Notes under the pieces: model-generated
The model's database searches: none
What the model was told of the DNA's origin: nothing
What the model saw: the letters and a program-made list of their open reading frames with translations, nothing else
Program-made: the position numbers and the translations under genes
DNA from: a virus
Strand: one strand, 5' to 3'
Length of the DNA stretch: 64,000 nt
Virus record (IMG/VR): IMGVR_UViG_3300042473_001540
Span: 124,001 to 188,000 of that record
Part shown: positions 11,559 to 59,500 of the stretch, piece by piece
Layout: every line of letters begins with the position of its first letter
How positions within the stretch are numbered: the first letter of the stretch is position 1

Positions 11559-11935
11559 AAAACCTACCAAGCTGGGGCAAACATTTGGTCGTCGATGCAG
11601 CAGGGTGCAATGAAGCCATCAACGACAAAGAGACTGTAACCAAATGGGTTGACCAACTGGTTAACGATATTGATATGATTGCATTTGGTCGACCAGAGAT
11701 TCATTGGTTCGCAGACCACGATGTTACTAAAGCTGGTATCAGTGCTGTGCAACTTATTACTACATCGGCTATTGTATGTCATTTTGTACCTCACACTTGG
11801 ACACTTCACCTAGACGTGTTTTCTTGTAAGGACTTTGATTCCAATATTGTGCTCAAGCTGTTGCAGGAATATTTTGGGGTGAAAGCTTGGAATATCAAGG
11901 AGTTTGAACGCGAAGCTCCTGACCTCAATAGCTGA
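11555..11935 (+). CDS. S-adenosylmethionine decarboxylase-like protein (SpeD family)
   Basis: A 126-residue protein like a class 1B SpeD. GKHLVVDAAGCN fits the start, TTSAIVCH aligns with the ESHISIH self-cleavage segment (Ser becomes the pyruvoyl group), PHTWTLHLDVFSC keeps the HTW and the conserved Cys, and FGVKAWNIKEFER fits the end. The Glu before the cleavage Ser is Thr and several flanking residues differ, so it may be a decarboxylase with changed substrate. SpeD normally supplies aminopropyl groups for spermidine. A two-codon reading frame (ATG AGA TGA) at 11550 overlaps this start and is better placed behind the AAGGAG site. Confidence 0.72.
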   Translation: MKNLPSWGKHLVVDAAGCNEAINDKETVTKWVDQLVNDIDMIAFGRPEIHWFADHDVTKAGISAVQLITTSAIVCHFVPHTWTLHLDVFSCKDFDSNIVLKLLQEYFGVKAWNIKEFEREAPDLNS

Positions 11936-11957
11936 ATTATATTATAAGGAAAAAGTA

Positions 11958-12545
11958 ATGCTTATAGGTTATGCAAGGACTAGCACACATGAACAATCCG
12001 CAAGTCTAGAATCTCAAATTGCAGCATTGCAACAGGCTGGGTGTGAAAAAATCTTCGCAGAACAAACCAGTGCTGTTGGAAGTAGACCGCAGCTCACCGC
12101 AGCGATGTCATATATTCGTGAAAAAGATGTGTTTATGGTTACACGAGTAGACCGGTTGGCTCGAAGTACATCAGATCTTCTCAAAATTGTAGAAGATTTG
12201 GAAAAGCGAGAAATTGGCCTAATAGTGCAGAGCATGAACGGCATGGAATTAGACACACGAAATGCAATATCCAAGTTGATGCTGACTGTTTTAGGCGCAG
12301 TAGCAGAGTTTGAGCGTCAAATGATGCTTGAGCGGCAGCGAGAGGGCATCGCCAAGGCAAAGGCAGAGCGGCGCTACAAGGGCAGGGCGCCAACAGCACG
12401 CAGGCAGCTGGCTGAGATTCAGTCACTAAAATCCCAAGGGGTTGGTGCAAGTGAGATCGCAAGGCGGCTTAAGATCAATAGGTCAAGCGTTTATCGAGTG
12501 TTGGCACCAAACTCTGTTATCAGCCCACTGGTTCAAGGTAAGTAA
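11958..12545 (+). CDS. small serine recombinase (resolvase/invertase family)
   Basis: A 195-residue resolvase. IGYARTSTHEQS at the start holds the catalytic serine with its Arg, VTRVDRLARSTSDLL carries the second arginine pair, and AEFERQMMLERQREGIAKAKAE is the long E-helix. The C-terminus (GASEIARRLKINRSSVYRVL) is the usual helix-turn-helix. AAGGAAAAA precedes the ATG. The length fits Tn3-type resolvases and Gin/Hin invertases, not large serine integrases. It could resolve genome dimers or invert a segment; I see no obvious crossover site next to it. Confidence 0.92.
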   Translation: MLIGYARTSTHEQSASLESQIAALQQAGCEKIFAEQTSAVGSRPQLTAAMSYIREKDVFMVTRVDRLARSTSDLLKIVEDLEKREIGLIVQSMNGMELDTRNAISKLMLTVLGAVAEFERQMMLERQREGIAKAKAERRYKGRAPTARRQLAEIQSLKSQGVGASEIARRLKINRSSVYRVLAPNSVISPLVQGK

Positions 12546-12564: not shown

Positions 12565-12837
12565 CTAATCTTCAACTATCAACAATTTCAAATCCCCTGA
12601 GCCCTTCAATAGTCTATGGAAGGTGTCTCGGGGGATTCTCACGACATCGCCGGGCTTGAGATTGCAGGGCATGCAGTTGTCCATTTGAAGTTGCCAACCA
12701 TTACCCTCAACCACTGTAATAAGTCTGTGACAGTGATCTCGATGCCACACTAGCTCATGAGAATCTACAGATTGAAAGAATGTTCTTTCCAAACCTTGAA
12801 TTTGTTTCTTGTCACTGTAGGGATTCATTACCACCAT
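12565..12837 (-). CDS. small cupin-fold protein
   Basis: A 90-residue single-domain cupin. VWHRDHCHRLITVVEG supplies the first metal-binding motif and LKPGDVVRIPRDTFHRLLKG the second. Similar one-domain proteins occur in T4-like marine phages, sometimes beside internal head proteins; that context agrees with the leader-bearing gene just upstream, whose stop overlaps this start. No enzymatic role can be named. It converges with the recombinase gene across 19 nt. Confidence 0.72.
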   Translation of the reverse strand: MVVMNPYSDKKQIQGLERTFFQSVDSHELVWHRDHCHRLITVVEGNGWQLQMDNCMPCNLKPGDVVRIPRDTFHRLLKGSGDLKLLIVED

Positions 12838-13406
12838 TTGGCACTAATTGGACTCAATCCCAAGGATTTAGTATAGCGGGGAACTCTACACGCCCAGTAT
12901 CCAGCCTTCATTTTGTCTGTTTTTTGTTCACAGTTGTGACGAGAAGCAAACGCTTTGCGTCGTTTGGGATCGCGGATTTTAACACTCAAACCTGACACAT
13001 CACCAAAGGCAATTTTTTTGACCCTGCCTGTTTTGGGATTCTTGACGTAGACGTAATACTTTTTAGGACCGCCTCTCTTGGGCTTGTTAAGCTCAACAGC
13101 TTTTCCTTGATACTCAGCCTCATCAAGACTTTCTGGAGTTTCAAAAATACAATCCAACGGAACCATTCTGCCTTCATACACACCAAACGTGCCTAAATCA
13201 CTCTCAATCATGTCCTGGTCAAGAGCGTGTTCCAAGAGTATATCTCCACAAGAAACACGACGTCGCATCTCACAAAAAAACTCAAACCAAGCTGGGCTGT
13301 GAATACGGAATATGTTATCAACTAGCGGAACTTTGTTATCCTGGTGCCATTGAATGGCTTGATTTACACTTTCATTCAAAGGTTGCGTAAGGTCTTGAAT
13401 TTTCAT
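12828..13406 (-). CDS. probable internal capsid protein with leader and C-terminal Cys/basic phage domain
   Basis: A 192-residue protein. The start MKIQDLTQPLNESVNQ resembles a T4 capsid-targeting leader ending in a prohead-protease site (L-N-E before Ser13). Residues 115-180 form a conserved phage domain: KKYYVYVKNPKTGRVKKIAFGD, then DPKRRKAFASRHNC and KAGYWACR, basic and with two cysteines. The same type of module is found in multi-domain head-associated proteins of marine T4-like phages. It shares the leader and module logic with the three giant proteins at 14893-22614. Function in the virion is inferred. Confidence 0.65.
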   Translation of the reverse strand: MKIQDLTQPLNESVNQAIQWHQDNKVPLVDNIFRIHSPAWFEFFCEMRRRVSCGDILLEHALDQDMIESDLGTFGVYEGRMVPLDCIFETPESLDEAEYQGKAVELNKPKRGGPKKYYVYVKNPKTGRVKKIAFGDVSGLSVKIRDPKRRKAFASRHNCEQKTDKMKAGYWACRVPRYTKSLGLSPISAKWW

Positions 13407-13439: not shown

Positions 13440-14171
13440 TTAGAAACCAAAATGCTCTTGTAAGATCTTGTCTATTTTGTGCAGTTGTTGAGTTACAGGC
13501 CCTAATAGGCAGTGAGTCCAGTGAGAAGGAACTATCGGAGGCAAGTAGCCGTCAATGTCCCGATTTAAATTTAACACGTTGATTACACTAGGACAATCCA
13601 ACACTTTTGCGAAGTTATCAACAGGAACAACTGAGCCTGATGTTCCAATACACAGGAACAGGCTTTTGTCTGTAAGGCTGTCCAGTGTGTTGTAGAGATA
13701 TTGGTATTTGGGTGCTGGTTCACCAAACAACACTACCGCAGGCTTGACATCAGTCAGGCTTTGGCAATTGGGACAACCTAGGGAGATGTTGTATCGAGTG
13801 TAGCCAATATTCCAAACATGGCCACAGTTTTCGCATTGCATTTCATCCAGCTGTCCGTGAACATGCACAACAGGGATGCAACCAGCCTCCTCTAGCAAGA
13901 GGTCTGCATTTTGAGTTATCACTGTTGCACTGTATTTTCTCTGCCATTCTGCCACCTGTTTGTGGGCGGCGTTTGGCTGAAACTTCAGAAGCATTTCCCG
14001 TAAGTCGCTGTGAAATTCATTTACAATTTGAAAGTTTTGTCGCCAAGTGGCGTAATTACTGTAAACCAATGGATCATAACGGCTCCATAAACCTTCGCTA
14101 TCTTCTCTAAATGTGGGGATGCCGCTTTCAGCACTCAAACCAGCGCCGCTAAAAATCAATAATTGGGTCAT
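13440..14171 (-). CDS. NAD-dependent protein deacylase (sirtuin, Sir2 family)
   Basis: A 243-residue sirtuin. GAGLSAESGIPTFR (about residues 9-22) binds NAD, TQNADLL and HVHGQL hold the catalytic Asn, Asp and His, two CxxC pairs (CENC and CPNC) bind zinc, and KPAVVLFGE and GTSGSV complete the Rossmann core. I used the internal ATG giving MTQLLIFSGAG; the upstream part of the frame has no ribosome site. The expected reaction removes acyl groups from lysines, making nicotinamide and O-acyl-ADP-ribose. It is transcribed away from the neighbouring genes that encode GNAT and ADP-ribosyltransferase-like domains. Confidence 0.92.
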   Translation of the reverse strand: MTQLLIFSGAGLSAESGIPTFREDSEGLWSRYDPLVYSNYATWRQNFQIVNEFHSDLREMLLKFQPNAAHKQVAEWQRKYSATVITQNADLLLEEAGCIPVVHVHGQLDEMQCENCGHVWNIGYTRYNISLGCPNCQSLTDVKPAVVLFGEPAPKYQYLYNTLDSLTDKSLFLCIGTSGSVVPVDNFAKVLDCPSVINVLNLNRDIDGYLPPIVPSHWTHCLLGPVTQQLHKIDKILQEHFGF

Positions 14172-14267
14172 AATTTTGATTATGCAACAAATTTCTGGAG
14201 GGTTGCAATCCAATTCTCATGTTTACTGCCTTTGTATTGTGCTCACTGTCCAGACAATAAATATACT

Positions 14268-14906
14268 ATGCCATATTTGAATCATAATATCCCCGTTTTA
14301 ACATGCCTAATACGTAACCAATACCTTTACAATCACACCAAAGGCCACGGCGAGTTCACTCCCTGTGATGTACACAGTGTCGCAAGTATGGAGAAACGCA
14401 CGCCTTTATTTGAAGCATTTTTGGAAAATGGAGTGAACTGGACACGTCGACCCATAACTGCTTTTTGTTGGCGTAATGATGCACCAGTAAGACCACTTGC
14501 AGAACATGTTTATTGGGACTGTTTCAGTCATTATATTGATGTGCAGGTCCGGCAACGCATGGCGGGGTTAAGGGCTACGTTGTTGGTTTACACTGGGGAA
14601 CGTCGTCAAGGACAATACTGTATGACTTTAGACTGGGGTTGGGAAAACTCTGCTTTTACTGACACCAATTTCAGTGAAACGCCTGAACACAAATGCGCGC
14701 ATTTGTTCAAAATGGATGAAGGAAACTATTATCTTTATCCCAACAATAGAATCATTTGGCATGACAATGCTTGGGTGAAAAATCCTATAACCAGTAATCC
14801 TGGGTATCAAATAGACATGACAGTCTACAGTGTGGAGAACGCTGTGGACTTTTATACAGATGACAGCTATATGACACATGTGGAGCCTGTAAATGAAGCT
14901 GGTTGA
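14268..14906 (+). CDS. conserved T4-like phage protein of unknown function
   Basis: A 212-residue soluble protein. YLYNHTKGHGEFTPCDVHSV near the start, RRPITAFCWR and HVYWDCFSHYIDVQ in the middle resemble a hypothetical family I associate with T4-like marine phages. A late-promoter-like AATAAATA lies only 5 nt before the ATG, so either the transcript is nearly leaderless or the match is chance. It overlaps the start of the first giant polyprotein by 14 nt, hence probable co-expression. An upstream in-frame extension to 14163 would overlap the sirtuin start and is not supported. Confidence 0.75.
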   Translation: MPYLNHNIPVLTCLIRNQYLYNHTKGHGEFTPCDVHSVASMEKRTPLFEAFLENGVNWTRRPITAFCWRNDAPVRPLAEHVYWDCFSHYIDVQVRQRMAGLRATLLVYTGERRQGQYCMTLDWGWENSAFTDTNFSETPEHKCAHLFKMDEGNYYLYPNNRIIWHDNAWVKNPITSNPGYQIDMTVYSVENAVDFYTDDSYMTHVEPVNEAG

Positions 14907-17900
14907 TATTTTGGAAAACAAGGAGGACCAACAGAATCAAAAACCCAGTGTGTTCAGCCAGTGGGAAGACACTGACCCAAAGAATGACAAGCCGGAAGAG
15001 TCAAAAAATAATCCCAGTGAACTCTATCATAGCACTATACTAGACAATGCGCCTAATATCCTGCAATCAGGATATATAACAACCTCTATCTACAAAGATC
15101 CAGCCAAGGATATAGTGTTTGATTCTCGCTCTACAACACCCCATACATCACCAACTATAGCTGTTCTCACTTCTTGTGGGACACTGATGCAAACCTACAA
15201 CGAACAAATTTCTCGCCAGCTAACGACGGCAAGCAGTCAACTGGGAACGCAAAGCAAAGCCTATCGAGCCTTGCGTGCCATCAGTCACGTTTTGGAATCA
15301 CAGAAGCTTTTTGAAAACGATCCACAACTAGGTAACAACAGCATTTGGCTCTACACTGAAGGTTGCCAAAGTGCATTGCACATACTGCTCGACAACAAGA
15401 CAGCAAAAATCACTTGGTTAGGTAGTTTGAATGGCACTGGTAGGCAACTTTTGGAGCAGGGGTTAGCACAAAGCCAGAAACAAGGTGCCTTACTCGCTGT
15501 TGTGAAACCCATCTGGAACAGCCACAAATTTTATGAGAAGATGGGATTTCAAGATCAAGGAACTGGTTATTGGAACTTACCTCTTGAGGAATCAGCTAAT
15601 CAACTGGATCGCGCAGATCTAGAAGACTTATTGGGTGCAATCACATATGAGCAAGAAGAGATTAACGACGCCAGCTATGATGCTGCGGGACCAAAGTATG
15701 AAAAACTTGACAAGGATTTCAAAGCCTTAGAGGCTGTTGCTTATGTGGTTAAAAATAACTTACGAGCACTTGACAATCCCAACTTGGGAAAAAATAGCAT
15801 TTTCCTCTATAACTATACCCCAGATCTAGGCGTGTTCAGTGTAACTGCAATACATGTGGTGATTGAAAATCAAGTGGCGCATGTGAAATGGTTGGGCAGT
15901 TATGACAACAAACCTGGTGCTGGCAAAGCGTTGATGTTACAAGCCTTGACTATCGCAAAGAACAAAGGGGCCACCAAGAGCGTCGTAGAGGCCAAATGGG
16001 AAAGCGAAGGCTTTTATCACAAGCTGGGTTACGATGTGGAGAACAGAGGATCAAACAACCCATTTACAGGCACCAGTTTAGTCCAAATGGGAAAGAAGTT
16101 GGAAGAAGCTTGGACTGATGAAGACCAGCGTATGGTTCACAAAAATCCCACAATTCAAGATTTGAAAAGGTTGGCACGCAACAACAAGTATCACAGTGCC
16201 AGATTTGTGATCTACAAAGATGGCAGTGTTGTGGCTGCGGATAGCGAACATTATACTCACCACAGTGCTGCACCTGCCATGGGCGCTTGGGCTTTGAGAG
16301 GGTATGTGCAATACTTGGGTGGCAACGACTATGCCTATCGCAGCATGGAAGTCTACAGTCCCAAAAGTGTTGACCATCCTCTTTTCCGCAAGTGGGAATC
16401 TAGTGGTATAGAGAATGGCAATCCCTCTGTTGTTGAGGAAAAATGGACCAAAAAGTATAAGAAGAGTATCAACTGCTCTAATCCTCAAGGGTTCAGCCAA
16501 CGTGCTCACTGTGCTGCTAGACGCAAACGACAAAAGGGCGGAAAGACAACTAGCAAGCCCTTGAATGAAAACAATAACGTAGAAATACACAACTATAAAA
16601 AGCTGGATCGCATCTTAGTTGCATTGTGTAACCTAGTTGACACCAGACGAAAGAAAAACCCTGACAAATACGGATGGGTAGCCGCAGGGTTGTTGGATCC
16701 CCGCAACCGTCTTGTAATAGGTTTCAGCACATTTGCCAATGACAAATGGTATCATGCTGAACGATTGGCTATGAGGGCTTATCGTAAAAAATACGGAAGC
16801 ATACCTGATGGCTGTATAATTGTAACCACATGCAGTCCATGCAGCGAGCAGATGCCAAGATATGGTGAAAGTTGTACTGACCTAATCAACAAGAGTCCTG
16901 TCAAAAAAGTCTATTGCGGCTACTCTGATACAACTCAATCCCAAAGTCAACGCACTTTCAATATTATGGTTACTGCTGATACAAACATACGAGAACGGTG
17001 CCAAAAATTTGCTGAAAACTTCATGGATTGGGAAGCGCAATATTTGGATGAAAGCTTGCGTGATTGGTTCAAACAAAAATGGGTGCGATTTGGGACAGAT
17101 GGCAAGATCAGAGGCGACTGTGCTAGAGGCAGTGAAGGCGAAGGCAAGCCCAAATGCCTGCCACAGCGGAAGGCTTGGGCACTGGGCAAGAAAAAACGTG
17201 CAACTGCTGCTAGGCGCAAGCGTAGAGAAGATCCCAATCCTGAACGTGAAGGCAAGGCCCGGAACGTAGCCACAAAAGAAAGTGTTGGCTCTACAAAATT
17301 GGGAGATCTCTGCACTATCAAAACTAATTTTCCTGATGCTGACTTTTGGCTTGTGCGACGCAGTGATAGAACAAATGTGGGCACACCAGCCAAAGAATTC
17401 AGTCCCTATCATATTGGAATCAAAGTCACAGCTACTGAACAGCTGATGCCAGAATATCTCTACTATATGATGATGCATCTCCACAACCAAGGCTATTGGA
17501 ACAGTCGAAGCATGGGCATGAGCAATCTTGTGCACATACGCACAGAAGATGTGAAAAACATACAACTGGCTTTGACAGAGCATGAGCTGAAAGAAAACTC
17601 CAGTTGTCCACATTGCGGAGGCCAAATGGTTAACTACTCTATGCTCAGTGAAAAACAAGATGCCTGCTACTACAAAGTCAAGAGTCGCTACAAAGTTTGG
17701 CCCAGTGCCTATGCCAGCGGTGCATTAGTGCAGTGCAGGAAAAAGGGTGCAAAAAACTGGGGCAAGAGCAAGACAAATGAAAGCATAAGCATTGATCAAC
17801 AAGAGGAACATGGAGGTCTCGAAGCCTACATAACTGATACATCTACCCCACAATTGGTCAATTATCTTGCAAGTGAAAATGCACCCGCCGACCTTGCAGA

Positions 17901-18621
17901 AAAATTGCAACGCAGATACAAAACAATAGCTGTGTTCAAAAACATATGGGTCGAGGAAGATCATCAAGGGTCTGGAGTAGGTAGCTGGATTTTAGAGGCT
18001 GGTATTGGGGATGCAATAGACAACCAGGCTCATGCTGTCATTCTCACTGCTGTCTCAGATGATCCCAAAAGACAATCACAACTTGAGAAATGGTATAAGT
18101 CTTATGACTTCAAAGAAATAGCTCGCAGTTCAACTGGGTATCCTGTGATGTTACTAGATTTAAACAAAGACCAGGTCTCAGAAGCTGCCCCGTGGCTCGG
18201 GCAGGGAGATGAGCCACTGCCCACTAAACTCTATCATGTCACAAGAACAAGAAACCGTTTGAGCATACGCCAGAGAGGACTTGTTCCCAAAACAAAGGAA
18301 CATGATCATATATTGCGACAACCAGGTGTGTTTCTGTTTGAAACTTTTGAACAAGCTGAAGATTGGGCTTACTATTGGAGTCAAGATGAGGGCGAGAGTA
18401 TGGATATATGGGAAATCAAGGTTCAAGATCCCAATGATCTAACTCCTGATCCAGCATTGGATATTCAGCACGATTACGATGCATGGGTCATCTACAAGCC
18501 AATTCCTGCAGCCAATGTGAGGCTGAAATTTACGCAACGCTGGCCGGAACCTTGGGGAAAGCCTACTACAACGGTGAAAAAAATCCGCAACCTTGAAGAA
18601 GATCCTAATGAAACTGAATGA
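14893..18621 (+). CDS. giant multidomain protein: ART-like, GNAT, deaminase and phage head modules
   Basis: A 1242-residue chain of modules. In order: leader MKLVDILE (1-8); ART-like half domain (LYHSTI...ILQSGYI, 44-95); GNAT 1 (115-230); GNAT 2 (265-395); unknown domain (408-505); Cys/basic module (517-550); zinc deaminase (565-690, HAE at 621-623, SPC at 648-650, Cys661); basic Cys module (721-790); specificity-subunit-like domain (797-895); CPHC plus CYYKVKSRYKVWPSAYASGA module (905-955); GNAT 3 (970-1090); ART-like domain (LYHVT...RGLVP, 1111-1215). Several linkers carry LxE followed by a small residue (after 233, 405, 559, 720, 901), the T4 gp21 prohead-protease pattern. I infer a capsid-packaged polyprotein cut into effectors. 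Confidence 0.8.
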   Translation: MKLVDILENKEDQQNQKPSVFSQWEDTDPKNDKPEESKNNPSELYHSTILDNAPNILQSGYITTSIYKDPAKDIVFDSRSTTPHTSPTIAVLTSCGTLMQTYNEQISRQLTTASSQLGTQSKAYRALRAISHVLESQKLFENDPQLGNNSIWLYTEGCQSALHILLDNKTAKITWLGSLNGTGRQLLEQGLAQSQKQGALLAVVKPIWNSHKFYEKMGFQDQGTGYWNLPLEESANQLDRADLEDLLGAITYEQEEINDASYDAAGPKYEKLDKDFKALEAVAYVVKNNLRALDNPNLGKNSIFLYNYTPDLGVFSVTAIHVVIENQVAHVKWLGSYDNKPGAGKALMLQALTIAKNKGATKSVVEAKWESEGFYHKLGYDVENRGSNNPFTGTSLVQMGKKLEEAWTDEDQRMVHKNPTIQDLKRLARNNKYHSARFVIYKDGSVVAADSEHYTHHSAAPAMGAWALRGYVQYLGGNDYAYRSMEVYSPKSVDHPLFRKWESSGIENGNPSVVEEKWTKKYKKSINCSNPQGFSQRAHCAARRKRQKGGKTTSKPLNENNNVEIHNYKKLDRILVALCNLVDTRRKKNPDKYGWVAAGLLDPRNRLVIGFSTFANDKWYHAERLAMRAYRKKYGSIPDGCIIVTTCSPCSEQMPRYGESCTDLINKSPVKKVYCGYSDTTQSQSQRTFNIMVTADTNIRERCQKFAENFMDWEAQYLDESLRDWFKQKWVRFGTDGKIRGDCARGSEGEGKPKCLPQRKAWALGKKKRATAARRKRREDPNPEREGKARNVATKESVGSTKLGDLCTIKTNFPDADFWLVRRSDRTNVGTPAKEFSPYHIGIKVTATEQLMPEYLYYMMMHLHNQGYWNSRSMGMSNLVHIRTEDVKNIQLALTEHELKENSSCPHCGGQMVNYSMLSEKQDACYYKVKSRYKVWPSAYASGALVQCRKKGAKNWGKSKTNESISIDQQEEHGGLEAYITDTSTPQLVNYLASENAPADLAEKLQRRYKTIAVFKNIWVEEDHQGSGVGSWILEAGIGDAIDNQAHAVILTAVSDDPKRQSQLEKWYKSYDFKEIARSSTGYPVMLLDLNKDQVSEAAPWLGQGDEPLPTKLYHVTRTRNRLSIRQRGLVPKTKEHDHILRQPGVFLFETFEQAEDWAYYWSQDEGESMDIWEIKVQDPNDLTPDPALDIQHDYDAWVIYKPIPAANVRLKFTQRWPEPWGKPTTTVKKIRNLEEDPNETE

Positions 18622-21502
18622 CCTATTGAACAAGCCTACCAGTAGCGTAGCTGAGCTGGCTAAAAAATACAAAGTGTCAACAGACTCTGTGGAGAAACAG
18701 CTGGCACAGGGCATCAAAGTGGAGATGGAACACACCCGGTTGCGGAGTGTGGCGCGAGAAATAGCCTTGGATCACTTGGGTGAGGATCTTAACTATTACA
18801 AGAAATTGAGCAAACTTGAGAAAAAGCCTGCTCAAGAAGCTCTTCTGATAGAGCTGTTTGCCCTGCTAAATGAAGTAAAAATCGACAATGTGAGTGGCAT
18901 TGGGGAAGTGCCTGACAATAAGAATGTGGATTATCTTGGCTTGAGAGTCGCGATGAAGCCCAGTGTATTTTTGAAATTGGCTAGCCCTTTGTCAAGAGAA
19001 CATGCTGGGAGTGTGGATTATATCAAACAGCAACTAGATCAAGGGCAGGGAATGGCCAGTCCTTGGCTGGTCTTAGACATACCAATAGAATGGGAAAAAG
19101 GTCGTTATAATAAATCCGCAAGAGTAATTGGGCACGAAGGCCGCAACAGAATGTATGCGGTCCTAGAAACTGAAGGCGATGCACCTGTTGAAACTCATTT
19201 GTTTTTTGTCGGTGGATTGCGTGCTAGGCACATCAAACCTGAATGGATTGAAGCACTCAACCTGCGTCTTGTACCACAGAGAGCAAACACTAGTGTATCT
19301 GGCCCGTTTTTTGAACTGCTGTTAAAGACTCAAAAAAGTCTCTCAGAAGAAAATGAAAACAAAAGAGACACATACCGTGTAACCTGGAGAGGTAGATTGG
19401 GCGAATATGATCCCAATTATTTTGACATCAAAAGTGACCCACTTGAAGACGATGATGGCAAAGTCATCGCCGTAAAAGATCAGCTTGTTCCCAAATCTCA
19501 TTTGCGTGCCAATTTAAACATAACTCCAAATCCCAACCTAGTGTATAGGGGCATGAGTAATCATGAATTTCAAAATATCAAAAAAACAGGAGTGATACAA
19601 AGCAAAGGCGAGTATAACTTGGCTGGGCAACAGGGCTTAACCTATTTTTCAACTGAACCCAGGTCAGCTGAAACTTATGCTCATAGTTTTGCACCATGGA
19701 ATCAAAAAGCCAACTGGGACAATCCAGCATGGGTAATTGCAGTGCCCAAACCTGATGAATCAAAAATTGTGCATGTGCAAGGCACAGGATCACATGAAGT
19801 GGGAGTCAAAGGCTCTATACCAGCGAATCAAATAAGGGAGATATACCGAGGAAAGGTTGTAGAATACGATCCTGGTGTGCACAACCAAGTTGCACCATCA
19901 GCATGGCTGCATTGGGAGAAAATGCCTGTTGATACATTGTTAACAGAGCGCAAAGGTGCGCCTGGCACTCTCAAATCCAAAATCACCAGACTGTATGGCG
20001 GAGGTGTCACATGTGACAAAACACAAAAACTCAAAACACGCCAGGGTGCTACAACTCTAGACAAACGCCAAGCCAACTGGTTTCAAAACAAACATTGCGG
20101 CGGAGCAACTAGAGTTGATGAAATCATAAGTGGTGAGCATATTCCAGGCGATTGGAAAAAATATGGAAGCGGCGACGCAGAAATGTTTGAAACAGAGTTT
20201 GATCTTCAAGGATATAAGATCACAATAAGTGTGAGTCGGGATTGGGCCCAATCTGGTGCCTATGTGTTGATGAAGAAAAACATAGAGGCTGGAGCAAACC
20301 TGGTTGGCAGAGAAATAATATTCAGGGTAGATGGCGAAACTGATCCAACAGGCTTACTAGGCACAGGTGCAGCGAATGTAATTTCAATTGTTGTAGGAAA
20401 AATCATAGGACTACTACAAAATATAGAATGGGACTATTTGGTCTTCGCAGGTGCTGGGGACAGTAGACAAAGAGTATATACTAAAATATTGAGTCAGATA
20501 TCTCCAGGACTTGATTCAGAGCCAATGCAATTTGGAGATTGGTTCCTGCTGATCAAAAACCATTTGTTGGCAGCAAAATCTCAAGAGCTGGATGAAGTTT
20601 TTAAAGGCAAGCCACTTCCTGGAGATTGGCAATCAATAAAGGGCGGTTCAACCCACTACACTGAATTTGAATTTGCTGGCAGTGAAGTGCAAATAGCAGT
20701 CGTAAAAGACGCTTCTTATGAGCTTCAAACTATCTTGCAAAAGCAAGTGCCAGAAAACTGGGTTGGATATGAAGTGTCCTTCTCTGTAGATCACAGCATC
20801 TCTGTAACAGGTATGTTTGACCAAAAAAGTGCCCAATTATTTGATTTGATTATACGAAAACTCAAATGGTTTTTCCAGACCCACAGCTGGGACTACATCA
20901 ACTTCAGTGGGGATGAGCGCAGCCGCAACAAGCTCTATCTCCGGCTGGCAAAACAGTTGGCACCTGCTGATAGCACAGTGTTGCACACTAACAAAAGCTT
21001 TGCAATTGTCAAGCAGGACAAGCTTGCATCATTCACTAACTTGGACGAAAGTTTAAGTTACAAAGGTTTGCGTCCTGGAGCAAATATTTGGTATGAGCCT
21101 GGCATGCAATATTCCCAATATAATTTATATCCAGGCAAAAGTATTGTGGGCCAGCGAGTATACCATATGACCAATAAGCTTACAAGTATAATAAAGTCAG
21201 GCGGACTGAAACCAAAATATGATGAGACTGGTGCTAGAGAATTTGGCCGATATAGCACTGTGGAATATCCTTTCACTCCAGTTATTGCTATATTTTTTGA
21301 TGTTGGTGAGCATGATTGGTTTGGCAAATACATCTTAAGTTGGGAAATAACACCTGAGGATAAAACTGCACGAGCATATATGCCAGTAGATACCATGCAG
21401 CCTTCAGATAGAGATAATTTGCTGCCCAATTGTCAGGTAACACCTGTAAGTATTGATAGGATTACTATCACAGATCTCAAAGGAAACCTTATAAAAGTAT
21501 GA
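18608..21502 (+). CDS. giant multidomain protein 2: DUF5661-like, ART-like and repeated capsid modules
   Basis: A 964-residue protein overlapping the previous gene by 14 nt. Order: leader MKLNDLLNKP; helical DUF5661-like domain (AELAKKYKVSTDSVEKQL...EHTRLRSVAREIALDHL, 14-70); domain with IGHEGRNRMYAVL (100-235); ART-like domain beginning VYRGMSNHEF (310-420, with TYFST and ETYAHS); a TRLYGG...ATTLDKRQANWF module (455-497); two related repeats (about 510-655 and 668-805, each with GDW at the start and a WDY...G..SR pattern near the end); and a C-terminal ART-like domain starting VYHMTNKLTSIIKSGGLKP (850-964). LxE sites occur near 89, 247, 447, 663 and 814. It is probably packaged with its neighbours. 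Confidence 0.75.
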   Translation: MKLNDLLNKPTSSVAELAKKYKVSTDSVEKQLAQGIKVEMEHTRLRSVAREIALDHLGEDLNYYKKLSKLEKKPAQEALLIELFALLNEVKIDNVSGIGEVPDNKNVDYLGLRVAMKPSVFLKLASPLSREHAGSVDYIKQQLDQGQGMASPWLVLDIPIEWEKGRYNKSARVIGHEGRNRMYAVLETEGDAPVETHLFFVGGLRARHIKPEWIEALNLRLVPQRANTSVSGPFFELLLKTQKSLSEENENKRDTYRVTWRGRLGEYDPNYFDIKSDPLEDDDGKVIAVKDQLVPKSHLRANLNITPNPNLVYRGMSNHEFQNIKKTGVIQSKGEYNLAGQQGLTYFSTEPRSAETYAHSFAPWNQKANWDNPAWVIAVPKPDESKIVHVQGTGSHEVGVKGSIPANQIREIYRGKVVEYDPGVHNQVAPSAWLHWEKMPVDTLLTERKGAPGTLKSKITRLYGGGVTCDKTQKLKTRQGATTLDKRQANWFQNKHCGGATRVDEIISGEHIPGDWKKYGSGDAEMFETEFDLQGYKITISVSRDWAQSGAYVLMKKNIEAGANLVGREIIFRVDGETDPTGLLGTGAANVISIVVGKIIGLLQNIEWDYLVFAGAGDSRQRVYTKILSQISPGLDSEPMQFGDWFLLIKNHLLAAKSQELDEVFKGKPLPGDWQSIKGGSTHYTEFEFAGSEVQIAVVKDASYELQTILQKQVPENWVGYEVSFSVDHSISVTGMFDQKSAQLFDLIIRKLKWFFQTHSWDYINFSGDERSRNKLYLRLAKQLAPADSTVLHTNKSFAIVKQDKLASFTNLDESLSYKGLRPGANIWYEPGMQYSQYNLYPGKSIVGQRVYHMTNKLTSIIKSGGLKPKYDETGAREFGRYSTVEYPFTPVIAIFFDVGEHDWFGKYILSWEITPEDKTARAYMPVDTMQPSDRDNLLPNCQVTPVSIDRITITDLKGNLIKV

Positions 21503-22614
21503 GAATTTACCATTTAGTGCCCTTAAAGAAGTTGCTAGAAGCTTATCAGCCATTGACAACCAAATGGCAACAAGACAATGTGGGCTCAGTTTCAAGATAT
21601 ATTACAAGCTTTGAGTATGATGACCATTTAGTCGAACAAAGACTTACTCAAGATAAAAATCAAAAAGACTTACAGGATGCATTGGCTGCCAGTGATTTAG
21701 AGCCCAATCCACAAGCCAAGGGCTATGTTTGGTTATGGACAGTGGATGGGGAAATAGAACAAACTGGCACAATGGGCCTTAAGGCCATACCCTTGTGGAA
21801 AGAATTGGTGCGACGCCTCTTTGGTTGGCTTGGATCTCATGAATGGGACTACTTGACTTTTATTGGTGGACGCGGCAGCAGGAACAAGCTCTATAGCGCA
21901 TTGGGTCAAATGTTGGCGCAGAGAGCTGGTGCCAAAGTATATTTTGATTTTGACACAAGTGACTTTGTTGTATATAAGCCCAGTGCAATAGTTCAACCAA
22001 AATTGCAAGAGGCTTTTGATTACCAACTTCCCCGGGATAAATGGAAGATAAAAACAGAAGGCGACAGCTATATTGATTTTTTGTTTGAAATTGATGGCAA
22101 CGAATACGAGCTTCGAATGTCTCGATTGCAAGAGCCTCAGAAGAGGGGTATTTACGAGGTGGAATTTAGGCACACAGAGTATGGCATGGACATAAGTGGC
22201 ACAGGTTCAGCCTTTAAAGTCTTCAGTGCTGTGTTTCAACTTCTCAAGTATGCTATTGATCATCAAAAAACCTTACCTGTAAATGGACTTTGGTTCCAGG
22301 CTTGGGCCCCGAGCAGGAAAAAGCGTTATAAGAGTATGGCACCAAAATTAGCAAGACATCTGGGTTGGACTTGGGTAACCAAGCAAGAGAGTTTTCCCTA
22401 CTCTCTCTCGCCAGGAACAGATGGCTACTTGATTCTCAAACCCAGTCTTGGCGAAACAGCTGGTGTGGGCAAGATAGTTAAAGGTGTGAACACTACCACC
22501 GATGTGGGACCTGATGCTGTTCAAAAACAAGCCCGGAAATTTCTCAACAAAGTCACAGCAGGAGGAGTTCCTCCTCAAACTCAAAGCAATGGCAAATTTC
22601 CCTCGGTTAAATAA
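21499..22614 (+). CDS. capsid-module protein 3 sharing repeats with the 964-residue protein
   Basis: A 371-residue protein starting at ATGA overlapping the previous stop. MRIYHLVPLKKLLEAY is a plausible capsid leader with an LLE/A cut after Glu14. Residues 75-160 (WDYLTFIGGRGSRNKLYSALG) and 178-330 repeat the module seen twice in the preceding protein, with an LQE/A site at 169-171 between the two copies. The end, TTTDVGPDAVQKQARKFLNKV, is a terminal segment also known from T4-like marine phage head proteins. No enzymatic motif is visible, so it may be a structural or carrier part of the same packaged set. Confidence 0.7.
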   Translation: MRIYHLVPLKKLLEAYQPLTTKWQQDNVGSVSRYITSFEYDDHLVEQRLTQDKNQKDLQDALAASDLEPNPQAKGYVWLWTVDGEIEQTGTMGLKAIPLWKELVRRLFGWLGSHEWDYLTFIGGRGSRNKLYSALGQMLAQRAGAKVYFDFDTSDFVVYKPSAIVQPKLQEAFDYQLPRDKWKIKTEGDSYIDFLFEIDGNEYELRMSRLQEPQKRGIYEVEFRHTEYGMDISGTGSAFKVFSAVFQLLKYAIDHQKTLPVNGLWFQAWAPSRKKRYKSMAPKLARHLGWTWVTKQESFPYSLSPGTDGYLILKPSLGETAGVGKIVKGVNTTTDVGPDAVQKQARKFLNKVTAGGVPPQTQSNGKFPSVK

Positions 22615-22620
22615 GCTGAA

Positions 22621-23616
22621 ATGGCAACTTTGTATAGTTTTGGTATGGATCCCACACGGTGGTACAGCAGGGCATTATATGCCTTCTCTACCAATGAATT
22701 AGGCTGGACTACAGGCAATAGTCCAGTCAATGGACTGGGCAGCATACAATCCATGGCGTATGGAAACAATACGTGGGTTGGTGCTACAAATTTTGGAGAC
22801 TTCACAGTAAGTGGTGATGGTGTAAATTGGTATTCCTACACTCCTGAAAACAAAAGTTGGCTTGTTAACAAAATCACATGGGGACAAGGATTGTTCACAG
22901 TTGTGGGACATGAAAAAAACTTCAGTAACCTTGCAGAAACTGGATTTGTCGCAGTGTCTGGAAATGGTGGTCCAGCAACTTGGGTCAGAAAATTTGTCAG
23001 TTATCAAGAACCCATGACTTTGTTTGATATCAAACACTTGGGCCTAGGAAAATGGATTGCTGTGGGCTGCACAAATCATCTGCGACAGCCTGTGGTAATC
23101 TATAGTGAAGACAACACTGACTCTTGGACAAGAATACTACTTCCAGATATTATCCCTGGCGGTATTTACAGTATTGAAGCCCACGTAGGAAGTAGTGTAA
23201 AAGTTTGGCTGGGCGGCAAAGGCTGGATAGCCTATACCAACGATTTTCAAACCACAAGCACAGAATGGACATTGTTTGATAATTTAAAAGATCAAGGCAA
23301 ATCCAAACCATTTACGCGGTTATTATACCGATCCACACTGGGCAAAGAAGCTATTGTTGCACTGTCAGGATCTACAGTTTGGTTCAACGACACAGCTTTG
23401 AATTGGCGGAGCACTACACAAGAGGGCTATAGATTCCAGGACGTAGCTAATTTCCAAAACCCCTTAACAAGCCAAGAGTCATTTAACTTTTCTGTTGGAG
23501 GCATGTTGAACCAGTACACTGGATTCAAAACTCCTTGGCAAGCCCAGAGCACACAAGAATTCTCCCTCATTGGATATAACAATGGAGTCCAAGCCAGCAG
23601 CCTTATTGTTGTTTGA
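22621..23616 (+). CDS. beta-propeller-like virion protein
   Basis: A 331-residue protein with repeated blades of the type YGNNTWVGATNFGDFTVSGDGVNWYSY, seen about every 50 residues as W..G.G.ftvVg or KWIAVGC...YSEDNTDSW. This is the BNR/sialidase-like or photosynthesis-stability-like propeller pattern common in phage tail and baseplate-associated proteins. Catalytic residues of sialidases are not evident. It follows the capsid-protein genes by 6 nt and reads in the same direction, so it is likely a late structural or receptor-binding protein. Confidence 0.65.
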   Translation: MATLYSFGMDPTRWYSRALYAFSTNELGWTTGNSPVNGLGSIQSMAYGNNTWVGATNFGDFTVSGDGVNWYSYTPENKSWLVNKITWGQGLFTVVGHEKNFSNLAETGFVAVSGNGGPATWVRKFVSYQEPMTLFDIKHLGLGKWIAVGCTNHLRQPVVIYSEDNTDSWTRILLPDIIPGGIYSIEAHVGSSVKVWLGGKGWIAYTNDFQTTSTEWTLFDNLKDQGKSKPFTRLLYRSTLGKEAIVALSGSTVWFNDTALNWRSTTQEGYRFQDVANFQNPLTSQESFNFSVGGMLNQYTGFKTPWQAQSTQEFSLIGYNNGVQASSLIVV

Positions 23617-53597: not shown

Positions 53598-56500
53598 CTA
53601 CACACCTTTGGCAGTGAGTGCAAGTTCAAGAGCTGTCACACGCTGATTGAGCTGATCGTTGCTTTCAGCCAACTCTTGCACAGCTCGAATCAACACAGGG
53701 AACACGTTAGCTACTGTGGCTTCAAGCTTCTCTGGGTTGTCCTCAAGCACCAAATGCAGCCAGTCTTGTAGATTATATCGATTGCTGACTTCCAGTACTT
53801 CTTGAGCAATAAATCCAGCGCTCTTGACCCCTACTCGGCTGCCATCTCTAGTATTCCATGTGAATTTTACTGGACGTAGATCACGTATCAGCTGCAATCC
53901 CAAAGGAATATCTTCGATGTCAGTTTTGTCTCTAGCATCAGACAAAGCAGTAATAGTAGTTACCTGAGCTCGCAGTGTAGTAATGCTGGAATCACCAAAA
54001 GTTATTGTGTTGTTGCTGGTTGCTGTTGCTCCACTTGCACCGCATCCCAAAAACACGTTGTTACTGCCATTTGTGTTGCTCGTACCTGCTGATCGTCCTA
54101 TTGCAGTGTTGTTTGTGCCATTGGTATTCTGCTGTAGGGCAGCGCCGCCAATTGCTATGTTTGAATTGGTGGTATTGTTCCTTAGAGCACATGCCCCCAA
54201 TGCAATGTTGTCACTGCCACAAAAGTTAGTGCCAAGGGCATCAAAGCCCAGGCCTATATTATTGATACCACTTGTATTAAATTGGAGTGCCCAACAACCA
54301 ACTGCAATGTTATTGCTACCAGTTGTATTGCATCGTAGAGCACAAGCACCGATAGCTGTATTATTACTACCATTTTGGTTGCAACAAAGCGCAGCTAGGC
54401 CAAATGCCATGTTAAATAGCCCAGTGCTGCTGGTATTGGATGTGCCTATTTTATAACTGCTAGTGCAGTCCAAACACGCATATCCACAACAGCCCACAGG
54501 GTTGCCGTTTATAGCAAATCCATTCCCATCTATAGCCAGTCGCAGACAACTGCCAGCAGCAATCAGCACACAAGATACACTGCCTGCTGCTGGTGTTACA
54601 TTGCCAATTACCGTGTTGTTGAACCCAGTTGTGATCAGACTTCCAGCGTTTTGGCCAATTGCTATGTTACATGTTCCAGTGGTGTTGGCAGTCAGCGCAC
54701 CAATACCCAGTGCTATGTTACCAGTCCCAGTAGTATTCTGCTGTAGGGCAGCGCCGCCAATTGCTATGTTTGAATTGGTGGTATTGTTCCTTAGAGCACA
54801 TGCCCCCAATGCAATGTTGTCACAGCCACCAGGGTTAATTCCAAGGGCATCAAAGCCCATGCCTATGTTATTGTTACCACTTGTATTAAATTGGAGTGCT
54901 AAACAACCAACTGCAATGTTGTGACACCCGCTAGTATTGCATCGTAGAGCAGACGCACCGATAGCTGTATTGCTACAACCATTACGGTTGCAACAAAGCG
55001 CAGCTAGGCCAAATGCCATGTTAAATAGCCCAGTGCTGCTGGTATTGGATGTGCCTATTTTATAACTGCTAGTGCAGTCCAAACACGCATATCCACAACA
55101 GCCCACAGGGTTGCCGTTTATAGCAAATCCATTCCCATCTATAGCCAGTCGCAGACAACTGCCAGCAGCAATCAGCACACAAGATACACTGCCTGCTGCT
55201 GGTGTTACATTGCCAATTACCGTGTTGTTGAACCCAGTTGTGATCAGACTTCCAGCGTTTTGGCCAATTGCTATGTTACATGTTCCAGTGGTGTTGGCAG
55301 TCAGCGCACCAATACCCAGTGCTATGTTACCAGTCCCAGTAGTATTCTGCGATAGGGCAAAGTAACCAATTGCTATGTTGCAACCGGTGGTGTTTGAGCA
55401 AAGGGCCAATGCCCCCAATGCTATGTTGTCACTTCCATTCAAGTTAGTGCCTAGGGCATTAACTCCCATGCCTATGTTATTGCAACCTAGTGTGTTGAAT
55501 TGAAGTGCCAAACAACCAATTGCAATATTATGAGACCCGTTCTGGTTGCATCGTAGAGCAGACGCACCGATAGCTGTATTGCTACAACCAGTTAAATTAC
55601 AACAAAGCGCCCCTTGGCCAAATGCCATGTTAAATGTCCCAGCACTGCTGGACATAAATGTGCCTATTTTATAACTGGAAGTGCAGTCCAAACATGCATA
55701 TCCACAGCTACCAATAGATGCTCCATTAACATAAAGCCCAGTTCCGTCTACTCGCAGTCGTTCACATGCGCCAGCACCAATCAATACAGTGCAAACCAAA
55801 CCCCCGGTGCCAGACAAATTGCCAATTACCGTGTTGTTGAACCCAGTGGTTATTAGGGAGCCAGCGTTTTGGCCAATTGCTATGTTACATGTTCCAGTGG
55901 TGTTGGCAGTCAGCGCACCAATACCCAGTGCTATGTTAAATGTGCCATTGGTATTCTGCTGTAGGGCAGCGCCGCCAATTGCTATGTTTGAATTGGTAAG
56001 ATTGTTCCTTAGAGCACATGCCCCCAATGCAATGTTGTCACAGCCACCAGGGTTAATGCCAAGGGCATCAAAGCCCATGCCTATGTTATTGTTACCAGTT
56101 AGGTTTAATTGGAGTGCCAAACAACCAACTGCAATGTTATTGCTACCAGCAGTATTGCATCGTAGAGCAGACGCACCGATAGCTGTATTGCTACTACCAT
56201 TACGGTTGCAACAAAGCGCACCTAGGCCAAATGCCATGTTATATAACCCAGTGCTGCTGGACATAAATGTGCCTATTTTATAACTGCTAGTGCAGTCCAA
56301 AGACGCATATCCACAGCTACCAATAGATGCCCCATTAACATAAAGCCCACTTGAGTCTACTTTCAGTCGTTCACAACTGCCAGCACCAATCAATACAGTG
56401 TTATTCAAACCCGTAGTGCCAGACAAATTGCCAATTATTGTGTTGTTAGATCCAGTTACAACATTTCCAGCTCCTTGGCCAATTGCTATGTTACATGTTC

Positions 56501-59500
56501 CAACGGCGTTTGCACTCAGCGCACCAATACCCAGTGCTATGTTAAATGTGCCACTGCAATTCTGCTGTAGGGCAGCGCCGCCAATTGCTATGTTTGAATT
56601 GGTCTGATTGTTCCTTAGAGCACATGCCCCCAATGCAATGTTGTCACTGCCACCAGAGGTAGTGCCAAGGGTGCCAAGGGCATCAAAGCCCATGCCTATG
56701 TTATTGTTACCACTTGTATTAAATTGGAGTGCCAGACAACCAACTGCAATGTTATTGCTACCAGTTGTATTGCATCGTAGAGCAGACGCACCGATAGCTG
56801 TATTATTACTACCATTTAGATTAAGACAAAGCGCAGCTAGGCCAAATGCCATGTTATATAACCCAGTGCTGCTGGACATAAATGTGCCTATTTTATAACT
56901 GCTATAGACGTCCAAACACGCATATCCACAGCTACCAATAGATGCCCCATTAACATAAAGCCCACTTGAGTCTACTTTCAGTCGTTCACAACTGCCAGCA
57001 CCAATCAATACAGTGTTATTCAAACCCGTAGTGCCAGACAAATTGCCAATTATTGTGTTGTTAGATCCAGTTACAACATTTCCAGCTCCTTGGCCAATTG
57101 CTATGTTACATGTTCCAACGGCGTTTGCACTCAGCGCACCAATACCCAGTGCTATGTTAAATGTGCCACTGCAATTCTGCTGTAGGGCAGCGCCGCCAAT
57201 TGCTATGTTTGAATTGGTCTGATTGTTCCTTAGAGCACATGCCCCCAATGCAATGTTGTCACTGCCACCAGAGGTAGTGCCAAGGGTGCCAAGGGCATCA
57301 AAGCCCATGCCTATGTTATTGTTACCAGTTAGGTTAAGTTGGAGTGCTAAACAACCAACTGCAATATTGTGACACCCGCTAGTATTGCATCGTAGAGCAG
57401 ACGCACCGATAGCTGTATTGCTACAACCATTTCGGTTACAACAAAGCGCACCTTGGCCAAATGCCATGTTAAATGTCCCAGTGCTGCTGGTATTGAATGT
57501 GCCTATTTTATAACTGCTAGTGCAGTCCAAACACGCATATCCGCAACAGCCCACACCGCTGCCGTTTATAGCAAATCCATTCACATCTATAGCCAGTCGC
57601 TGACAACTGCCAGCAGCAATCAGCACACAACATACACTGCCGGCTGCTGGTGACAAATTGCCAATTATTGTGTTGTTGAACCCAGTTGTGATCAGACTTC
57701 CAGCGAGTTGGCCAATTGCTATGTTACATATTCCAGCGGTGTTTGCAGTCAGCGCACCAATACCCAGTGCTATGTTAAATGTGCCACTGGTATTCTGCTG
57801 TAGGGCAGCGCCGCCAATTGCTATGTTTGAATTGGTAATATTGTTCCTTAGAGCACATGCCCCCAATGCAATGTTGTCACTGCCATTAAAATTAGTGCCA
57901 AGGGCATCAAAGCCCATGCCTATGTTATTGTTACCACTTGTATTAAATTGGAGTGCCAAACAACCAACTGCAATGTTATTGCTACCAGTTGTATTGCATC
58001 GTAGAGCACTCGCACCGATAGCTGTATTGCTACAACCATTTCGGTTACAACAAAGCGCACCTTGGCCAAAAGCAAAGTTGTTTGTTCCTGTACTGACTGT
58101 AAGGCCGTTACCAACCTTATAGCTGGCATAGATGTCCAAATTGGCAGTAGTAGCCGCAACACCTGTTAAAGCAGCGCCGCAACCAAAATAACATCTTGCA
58201 CACACGTCCCCTGTGCCGTTGTTGACAACCAAACAGTTTGCGTCAACTCTTAGTCTTTCGTTTGTTCCAGCGCCTATCAACACTGTGTTCACACAATCAG
58301 CTGTGCCAGCCAAGTTACCAATTACTGTATTACTGCACCCAGTTGTTATTGAAAAACCTGCACAAACGCCTATACCAATGTTGCTGTTACCAGTTGTGTT
58401 GCAGTTCAGGGCCATGAATCCAAGTGCTGTATTGAAACAGCCTATAGTATTTGACTTAAGACTATTCCCGCCAACCGCAGTATTGCACAAACCTATTGTG
58501 TTAGCTGTAAGGCTGCAAGTGCCTATACCAACATTTTCCACTCCTGTGGTATTGGCGTCTACAGCATAAGCCCCAATTCCAATGTTGTTAAAGCCTGAGG
58601 TATTAGCCCCCAATGCAAAGGCACCAAAACCTATGTTTTGGCATCCTATTGTATTGTTTTGAAGTACTTGCTCACCAACCGCAGTGTTGTAGCCACCAGT
58701 TGTAGTCCTTCTCAAGGCAAAATGTCCCAGAGCCACATTGGCTGTTCCCTGTGTGCCACTTACGCAACAAAGAGCCCCGTTACCAACACCAATGTTACCA
58801 CACGGCCCGCCTCCTAACATCATGGTGTCAATGCCTATTGCGATATTACTGCGCCCAGTTGTGCTTGCACACATGCTGCTGCTGCCAAATGCCAAGTTTT
58901 GACATCCAAAACCGTTGTTGACCAAAGCTAGACAACCAACTGCAATGTTATCTGCTCCAGTAGCAGTAGTATTGCCAGCATTATATCCCAACTGCACATT
59001 CGACCCAACAGGAGTGTTGGCATAAACTGTCCCCAAACTTGTGGGAGTAGCAGCAGACACACTTCCGCCGCTAATGCCAGTTAAACCAGCACCACAGCCA
59101 AAGAAGCAGCGAGCACACACATCACCAGTGCCATTGTTTACAACTAGACAATTGGCGTCAACACGGATACGTTCAGTAGCCCCTGCGCCAATCAATACAG
59201 TGGCGGTGAGGCCAGCACAACCTGATAAATTACCTATAATAGTATTGCTGGTTCCGGTTGTGATATTACCCCCACTGCTGTTGCCAATTGCTATATTACA
59301 TGCACCAGTAGTTGTGTTGAGTAGCGAAAGAACACCAATGCCAATGTTGCAGTTGCCAGTATTAGCGGCCAAAGCACATCTGCCCATTGCAATGTTACGA
59401 ACTCCTACTGTATTGCTGGCCAAAGCAAATGGCCCAACAGCAACGTTGCTACCACCCGATGTGTTTGCAGCTAGTGAGCATGCGCCAAGAGCAATATTGC

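What the first reader, a model, noticed from the sequence alone, without database searches (positions are those of the whole stretch)
14893..22614. Capsid-packed effector polyproteins with ART-like, GNAT and deaminase domains separated by prohead-protease sites
Three overlapping genes (1242, 964 and 371 residues) string together domains that modify proteins or nucleic acids with Cys/basic modules typical of T4-like head proteins. Two of the N-termini (MKLVDILE, MRIYHLVPLKKLLE), and that of the 192-residue protein at 12828 (MKIQDLTQPLNE), look like T4 capsid-targeting leaders ending in [IL]xE. Further [IL]xE sites fall between domains, for example after residues 233, 405, 559, 720 and 901 of the first protein, several followed by Ser, Ala or Asn. 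Known: T4 gp21 cuts at [IL]xE, and T4 Alt, an ADP-ribosyltransferase, is packed and injected. Inferred: this phage delivers a cleavable multi-effector cargo. Some [IL]xE also occur inside domains, so the pattern needs a statistical test.
Basis: partly seen in the sequence, partly recalled or inferred. Interest (0 to 1): 0.92.

Follow-up and report, generated by a model that had tools for sequence, protein, structure and literature searches.

The report
Phage effector cassettes cut by capsid protease
A giant T4-like phage appears to pack strings of enzymes into its head as long precursor proteins whose parts are separated by cutting sites for the phage's own head protease, and related environmental viruses shuffle the same parts at the same kind of site.

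Summary
The three genes are real (p1 1242, p2 964, p3 371 aa) and modular: GNAT x3, deaminase, Cys/basic modules and a weak Tpt1-like domain in p1; DUF5661, ART-type and GNAT-type folds in p2; two more copies of p2's GNAT-type domain in p3. Position is decisive. Relatives of five modules, in upstream contexts under 40% alike, carry [ILVM]xE exactly at the border: A 40/43, B 47/60, C 23/34, H 14/15, V 5/6, against 2-4% background. Sister loci swap cassettes and split genes at these sites, a short N-terminal leader replacing the internal site. Our contig has no gp21 hit; it ends 65 bases before one, which an overlapping contig, identical at the locus, carries. The capsid protein has LFE|N aligned with T4 gp23 LTE|A. 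Best reading: polyvalent effectors packed by T4-type leaders and cut in trans by gp21. Cleavage, packaging and injection in this phage are inferred, not shown. Structure predictions were poor.

The parts
14893..18621 (+). p1, 1242 aa polyvalent precursor
14893..14916 (+). p1 N-terminal leader MKLVDILE| (CTS-like, 8 residues)
   Evidence: compare T4 IPI N-terminus and CTS description
14917..15591 (+). p1 9-233: unassigned N-terminal stretch plus GNAT 1; ends LEE|S
   Evidence: FR47 187-227 E 2.4e-6
15592..16107 (+). p1 234-405: GNAT 2; ends LEE|A
   Evidence: Acetyltransf_10 342-402 E 1e-9
16108..16440 (+). p1 406-516: domain X, no family; ends VVEE|K
   Evidence: follows ..MKLLDLFE|A in L060; nothing significant in Pfam
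16441..16569 (+). p1 517-559: Cys/basic module A; ends LNE|N
   Evidence: border test 40/43
16570..17052 (+). p1 560-720: deaminase cassette; ends LDE|S
   Evidence: dCMP_cyt_deam_1 586-676 E 9.5e-10
17053..17595 (+). p1 721-901: Cys/basic module B plus unassigned stretch; ends LKE|N
   Evidence: border test 47/60; phrog_727 678-990 E 2.4e-40
17596..17652 (+). p1 902-920: CPHCGG piece (zinc-knuckle-like by eye); ends LSE|K
17653..17781 (+). p1 921-963: Cys/basic module C (DUF5872-like, weak); ends KTNE|S
   Evidence: border test 23/34; DUF5872 E 0.052, below cut-off
17782..18183 (+). p1 964-1097: GNAT 3; ends VSE|A; absent in sister protein L056:7198-9024
   Evidence: Acetyltransf_7 1012-1075 E 9.8e-14
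18184..18600 (+). p1 1098-1236: Tpt1/KptA-like ART candidate; ends NLEE|D
   Evidence: PTS_2-RNA E 0.012, below cut-off; mobile cassette in L060
18608..21502 (+). p2, 964 aa polyvalent precursor
18608..18874 (+). p2 1-89: DUF5661; ends LLNE|V
   Evidence: PF18905 16-73 E 2.5e-11
18875..19348 (+). p2 90-247: domain V (VKIDN); ends LSE|E
   Evidence: border 5/6; three contexts follow an N-terminal leader
19349..19948 (+). p2 248-447: ART-type fold; ends LTE|R
   Evidence: 254-440 45.6% to a 'large polyvalent protein' of phage Pag-Yong1; Z 6.6-8.8 to ART-type folds
19949..20122 (+). p2 448-505: Cys module E; ends VDE|I
20123..20596 (+). p2 506-663: domain G, GNAT-type fold; ends LDE|V
   Evidence: Z 6.6-8.2 to GNAT folds at 512-652 (weak model)
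20597..21049 (+). p2 664-814: second domain G; ends LDE|S
21050..21499 (+). p2 815-964: C-terminal domain (ART-like by eye only); another domain (HAD-like by eye, Pfam E 0.1) takes its place in L058
21499..22614 (+). p3, 371 aa: leader to 14, domain G 15-171, domain G 172-319, tail T 320-371
   Evidence: cuts LLE|A, LQE|A, LGE|T; weak match to a virion protein of PA5oct
12828..13406 (-). p0, 192 aa: leader MKIQDLTQPLNE|, Cys/basic module H after LDE|A at residue 96
   Evidence: border test for H 14/15; phrog_7595 E 1.7e-14

Best explanation
p1, p2, p3 and p0 are capsid cargo precursors. A short N-terminal leader ending in [IL]xE targets each into the prohead core, as the capsid-targeting propeptides of T4 internal proteins do. 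The T4-type prohead protease gp21 then removes the leader and cuts at [ILV]xE linkers between cassettes, leaving separate small proteins in the head: acetyltransferases, a deaminase, ADP-ribosyltransferase-type domains and Cys/basic modules that may bind the packaged DNA. They enter the host with the DNA and modify host proteins or nucleic acids at once. Each cassette carries its own border site, so cassettes can be swapped or genes split without losing packaging or release. Shown by sequence: cassettes, border sites, shuffling at the sites, protease in the phage. Inferred: cutting, packaging, injection, host targets, DNA binding.
For: Border test over five modules, 129 of 158 contexts with [ILVM]xE at the border. 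Shuffling and gene splitting at the sites: p2 LLNE|VKIDN = gene starts MKLWDFLQE|VKIDN (L058) and MRLIDLFE|AVKIDN (L060, L319); p1 VVEE|KWTKKY = gene start MKLQELLDFNAANLEE|KWTKKY (L056). Homology ends peak exactly at P1 (48 at offset 0; 7-35 at the 60 other offsets) and homology starts at +3 (49; 35-39 at +5 to +7; 9-26 elsewhere). gp21 in the overlapping contig and in 13 of 25 module-bearing contigs over 100 kb that I chose (12 of 14 of at least 200 kb). Capsid protein site aligned with T4. T4 gp21 cuts after L/I-X-E and 10-19 residue propeptides target cargo (PMC9026906 passages). A virion protein with the same sort of N-terminus: cytidyltransferase SSM1_190 of S-SM1, MKKFSAFLNE|A, reported in virions (it has none of modules A-E). 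Weak homologue of domain G marked ESI-MS/MS in PA5oct.
Against: No virion data for this phage. Cyanophage SSM1_115, which carries modules B and C, is annotated hypothetical, not structural. 27 of 46 [ILV]xE in p1-p3 are not at assigned borders, so accessibility must choose. Border sites are kept better than others overall (28/38 vs 17/37) but not in p2 (12/20 vs 11/20). Module starts were set by p1/p2/p0's own sites, and B's border was moved one residue, so E could in part be a conserved module edge. Modules D (3/14) and E (0/4 at -1, 2/4 at -3) do not show it. p1's leader is shorter than T4's; p2's is unclear (SVAE at 16). Generic breakpoint enrichment is modest (starts 220/866 vs 150.9 expected, reversed motif 165 vs 127.8; ends 246/787 vs 136.9, reversed 177 vs 112.7). 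12 of 25 contigs had no gp21 hit. KTNE at p1 963 does not fit [ILV]xE.
Confidence: 0.72

Rival explanations
1. Packaged polyvalent proteins that stay intact: the [ILV]xE triplets are linker, helix-end or conserved module-edge features, and the proteins are injected as multi-domain chains, as proposed for other polyvalent proteins.
For: Raw counts are only mildly enriched and control ORFs are enriched too; 27 of 46 triplets are not at assigned borders; module starts were set from the window's own sites.
Against: E, not D, at P1 (E in 136 and D in 2 of 158 contexts) with mostly I/L/V/M at P3 and variable P2 and P1' across unrelated modules; the same triplet ends N-terminal leaders; gene fission at the sites.
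Confidence: 0.13
2. Cut in the prohead, but a head-building set: Cys/basic modules compact DNA or act as core proteins, and the enzyme domains act on virion or phage components rather than on the host.
Against: Cargo of modular proteins includes deaminase, GNAT, sigma-70 region 4, ParB-like, nucleotidyltransferase and LysM/GH19 domains, which fit takeover better than assembly; domain content varies between sister loci.
Confidence: 0.12
3. Not packaged: ordinary late or cytosolic multi-domain enzymes that happen to share mobile modules.
For: No virion data; SSM1_115 is not annotated structural.
Against: Leaders, border sites and gp21 co-occurrence.
Confidence: 0.03

Closest known systems
Polyvalent proteins (Iyer et al. 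2017, PMC5512222; passages seen)
   Same: Long proteins mixing domains such as ART and GNAT with nucleic-acid domains, proposed to be injected with phage DNA; p2's ART-type domain is 45.6% identical to part of an annotated large polyvalent protein.
   Different: In the passages seen, processing is ascribed to peptidase domains inside the protein (zincins, C-terminal assemblin-like). Here Pfam finds no peptidase in p1-p3 and the sites fit a separate capsid protease.
T4 internal head proteins and Alt (PMC9026906 passages)
   Same: Short N-terminal capsid-targeting propeptide removed by gp21, which cuts after L/I-X-E; Alt is a packaged ADP-ribosyltransferase.
   Different: T4 cargo carries one activity per protein (recalled); here several cassettes lie in a row with a site at each border.
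SPN3US ejection proteins (PMC10052503 passages)
   Same: Jumbo-phage head cargo processed by the prohead protease after a short motif ending in E.
   Different: Thirteen of the 14 reported cuts remove N-terminal propeptides and the other a C-terminal one; separation of enzyme domains is not described in the passages seen.

Membership tests
Polyvalent proteins | Several biochemically unlike domains in one chain | tested here: met
   p1: GNAT and deaminase above Pfam cut-off; p2: ART- and GNAT-type folds, weak model
Polyvalent proteins | Delivered into the host with the DNA | not testable with these tools
   no virion or infection data
Polyvalent proteins | Embedded peptidase (common theme, not required) | tested here: inconclusive
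   no Pfam peptidase in p1-p3; a HELTH zincin-like motif by eye in sister L060:9962
T4-type capsid-targeted internal proteins | N-terminal leader of 10-19 residues ending in [IL]xE (p3, p0) | tested here: met
   p3 14 residues, p0 12 residues
T4-type capsid-targeted internal proteins | The same leader in p1 and p2 | tested here: inconclusive
   p1 has [IL]xE at residue 8, shorter than in T4; p2 only SVAE at 16, at the DUF5661 edge
T4-type capsid-targeted internal proteins | gp21 protease encoded by the same phage | tested here: met
   overlapping contig G001, phrog_207 E 1.5e-48; none in our truncated contig
T4-type capsid-targeted internal proteins | Found cut in virions | not testable with these tools
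   needs virion mass spectrometry
Prohead protease gp21 (S77) | GEL[ND]HP histidine and SSRG serine motifs | tested here: met
   alignment with T4 gp21 only; that these residues are catalytic is recalled
ADP-ribosyltransferase fold | ART fold | tested here: inconclusive
   p2 309-441 Z 6.6-8.8 on a model of mean pLDDT 47.9; p1 C-terminus E 0.012

The most novel reading that the evidence does not exclude
A widespread trans-cut polyprotein platform in T4-like jumbo phages: exchangeable effector cassettes, each bounded by a gp21 site, are strung together behind a capsid-targeting leader, released inside the head and injected together; the cut site doubles as the recombination border.
Probability: 0.55. 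Interest if true: 0.88.

Novelty: new variant of a known kind. Interest (0 to 1): 0.8.

Why it matters
It would join two known ideas, polyvalent injected proteins and T4 capsid targeting, into one mechanism: how jumbo phages load many different effectors. It also gives a reading rule, [ILV]xE borders behind a leader, that splits long 'hypothetical' phage proteins into cargo and predicts new anti-host domains. I found no report of it in full-text searches of openly licensed papers or in passages of five papers; subscription papers and supplements were not seen.

Tried and rejected
Raw [ILV]xE counting: too weak to settle anything. Generic homology-breakpoint test: positive but diluted, and the reversed motif is also enriched. 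Leader frequency: 41/97 modular vs 318/1371 control ORFs, significant (p 7e-5), but the control rate is high. AlphaFold of p1 residues 1-1200: mean pLDDT 34, unusable. AlphaFold of p2: 47.9; Foldseek gave nothing at E <= 0.001; only the VIA second look was of some use. PDB sequence searches of two ART candidate segments: no hit, and one chance-level hit at E 0.35. PADLOC: nothing for the four window proteins given (p1, p2, p3, Sir2); of three sister proteins only L061 rang. DUF5661 (module D) border: 3/14 at -1; module E 0/4 at -1, 2/4 at -3. The model start for the large domain G drifted inward, so its junctions were read by eye. Absence of gp21 from our contig was first taken as evidence against; dropped. 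In one search only T4 and this phage were aligned for gp21, since the script did not pick up the other homologues. In one search only 4 of 8 intended extra proteins were found and used. Rows dropped before counts: near-identical copies of the locus (listing), and contexts at least 40% alike upstream or with too little upstream sequence.
Full report
What is there. The window lies at 124001-188000 of a 309,756-base IMG/VR virus record. The phage is T4-like: its DNA polymerase is 46.7% identical to that of Agrobacterium jumbo phage Atu_ph07 and its portal matches phrog_213 at E 1.4e-104. Three overlapping genes, p1, p2 and p3, are as described. Pfam gives GNAT and deaminase domains in p1 and DUF5661 in p2 above cut-off. 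The p1 C-terminus resembles Tpt1/KptA only weakly. p2 309-441 takes an ART-type fold and p2 512-652 a GNAT-type fold in a poor model.

Is [IL]xE more than chance? By count, barely: 23 [ILV]xE in p1 against 14.3±3.2 in shuffles, and ordinary ORFs of the same loci are enriched as well. By position, yes. I collected relatives of small modules from IMG/VR and looked at the residues just before each module, after removing contexts at least 40% alike upstream. [ILVM]xE sits exactly at the border in 40 of 43 contexts for module A, 47 of 60 for B, 23 of 34 for C, 14 of 15 for H (the module of p0) and 5 of 6 for V, against 2.2-3.8% elsewhere in the same flanks. P1 is E in 136 of 158 contexts and D in 2; among the 136, P3 is L 79, I 25, V 16, M 9; P2 and P1' vary. 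This looks like a protease specificity, and it is the L/I-X-E rule of T4 gp21 (PMC9026906 passages), widened to V and M. Limits: module starts were taken from the window's own sites, B's border was shifted by one residue after a first look, and two further modules, D and E, did not show it.

Shuffling at the sites. Sister loci hold the same cassettes in other orders. The V domain follows an internal LLNE| in p2, but follows the N-terminal leaders MKLWDFLQE| in L058 and MRLIDLFE|A in L060 and L319. p1's internal VVEE|KWTKKY becomes a gene start with its own leader in L056. GNAT 3 of p1 is missing from an L056 protein, the junction still reading E|AAPW. p2's last domain is replaced by another (HAD-like by eye) after the site in L058. 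Genes thus split, fuse and swap at the proposed cut sites. Across 108 non-redundant modular proteins plus 4 added ones, homology ends peak at the P1 residue.

Protease. Three searches of the window's own record found no gp21; the phrog_207 model found it in 9 of 9 other T4-like records. An overlapping contig, 100% identical over p1 and p2, has it at E 1.5e-48; the match starts 65 bases past the end of our contig. That contig also encodes a scaffold-like and a major capsid protein, whose GILFE|NATPG aligns with T4 gp23 GSFLTE|AEIG (that T4 is cut there is recalled). Of 25 chosen contigs over 100 kb with modular proteins, 13 have gp21: 12 of 14 of at least 200 kb and 1 of 11 shorter ones.

Cargo elsewhere. 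In 52 modular proteins Pfam finds DUF5872 in 12, DUF5661 in 6, Acetyltransf_7 and Acetyltransf_1 (GNAT) in 5 each, cytidylyltransferase-like in 5, LysM in 3, deaminase in 2 and sigma-70 region 4 in 1, among 22 families.

Packaging evidence is indirect. S-SM1 cytidyltransferase SSM1_190 (T4-GC 190) begins MKKFSAFLNE|A, and that cluster is reported among S-SM1 virion proteins; it carries none of modules A-E. PA5oct gp135, a weak relative of domain G, is marked ESI-MS/MS. Against: S-SM1's own protein with modules B and C is annotated hypothetical.

Verdict. The reading of a cleavable, capsid-packed multi-effector cargo is supported by comparative sequence evidence; the biochemical steps remain to be shown. 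It works like T4 cargo maturation applied to polyvalent proteins, a combination I did not find described in the searches named.

Noticed in passing
13440-14213 (-): Sir2-family gene (PF02146 E 2.8e-37) beside the effector genes: another NAD-using enzyme.
   Followed up: no
22621-23616 (+): 331-aa protein downstream of p3; a similar one follows a p3-related gene in L319:3410-4405; perhaps virion.
   Followed up: no
11904-12545 (+): 213-aa protein that reads like a serine recombinase/resolvase (by eye).
   Followed up: no
L061:9713-13360: Modular protein with repeated GVAE| linkers and a sigma-70 region 4 domain (E 1.2e-17): a possible packaged transcription factor.
   Followed up: partly
L041, L043-L045, L268, L280: Modular proteins joining a cytidylyltransferase-like domain and a KTDG/KLDG ligase-like motif (by eye): possible packaged RNA repair.
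   Followed up: no
L068:14399-17328: Neighbouring proteins with collagen-like GPP repeats between portal and core genes.
   Followed up: no
53598-60728 (-): 2376-aa ORF, not examined.
   Followed up: no
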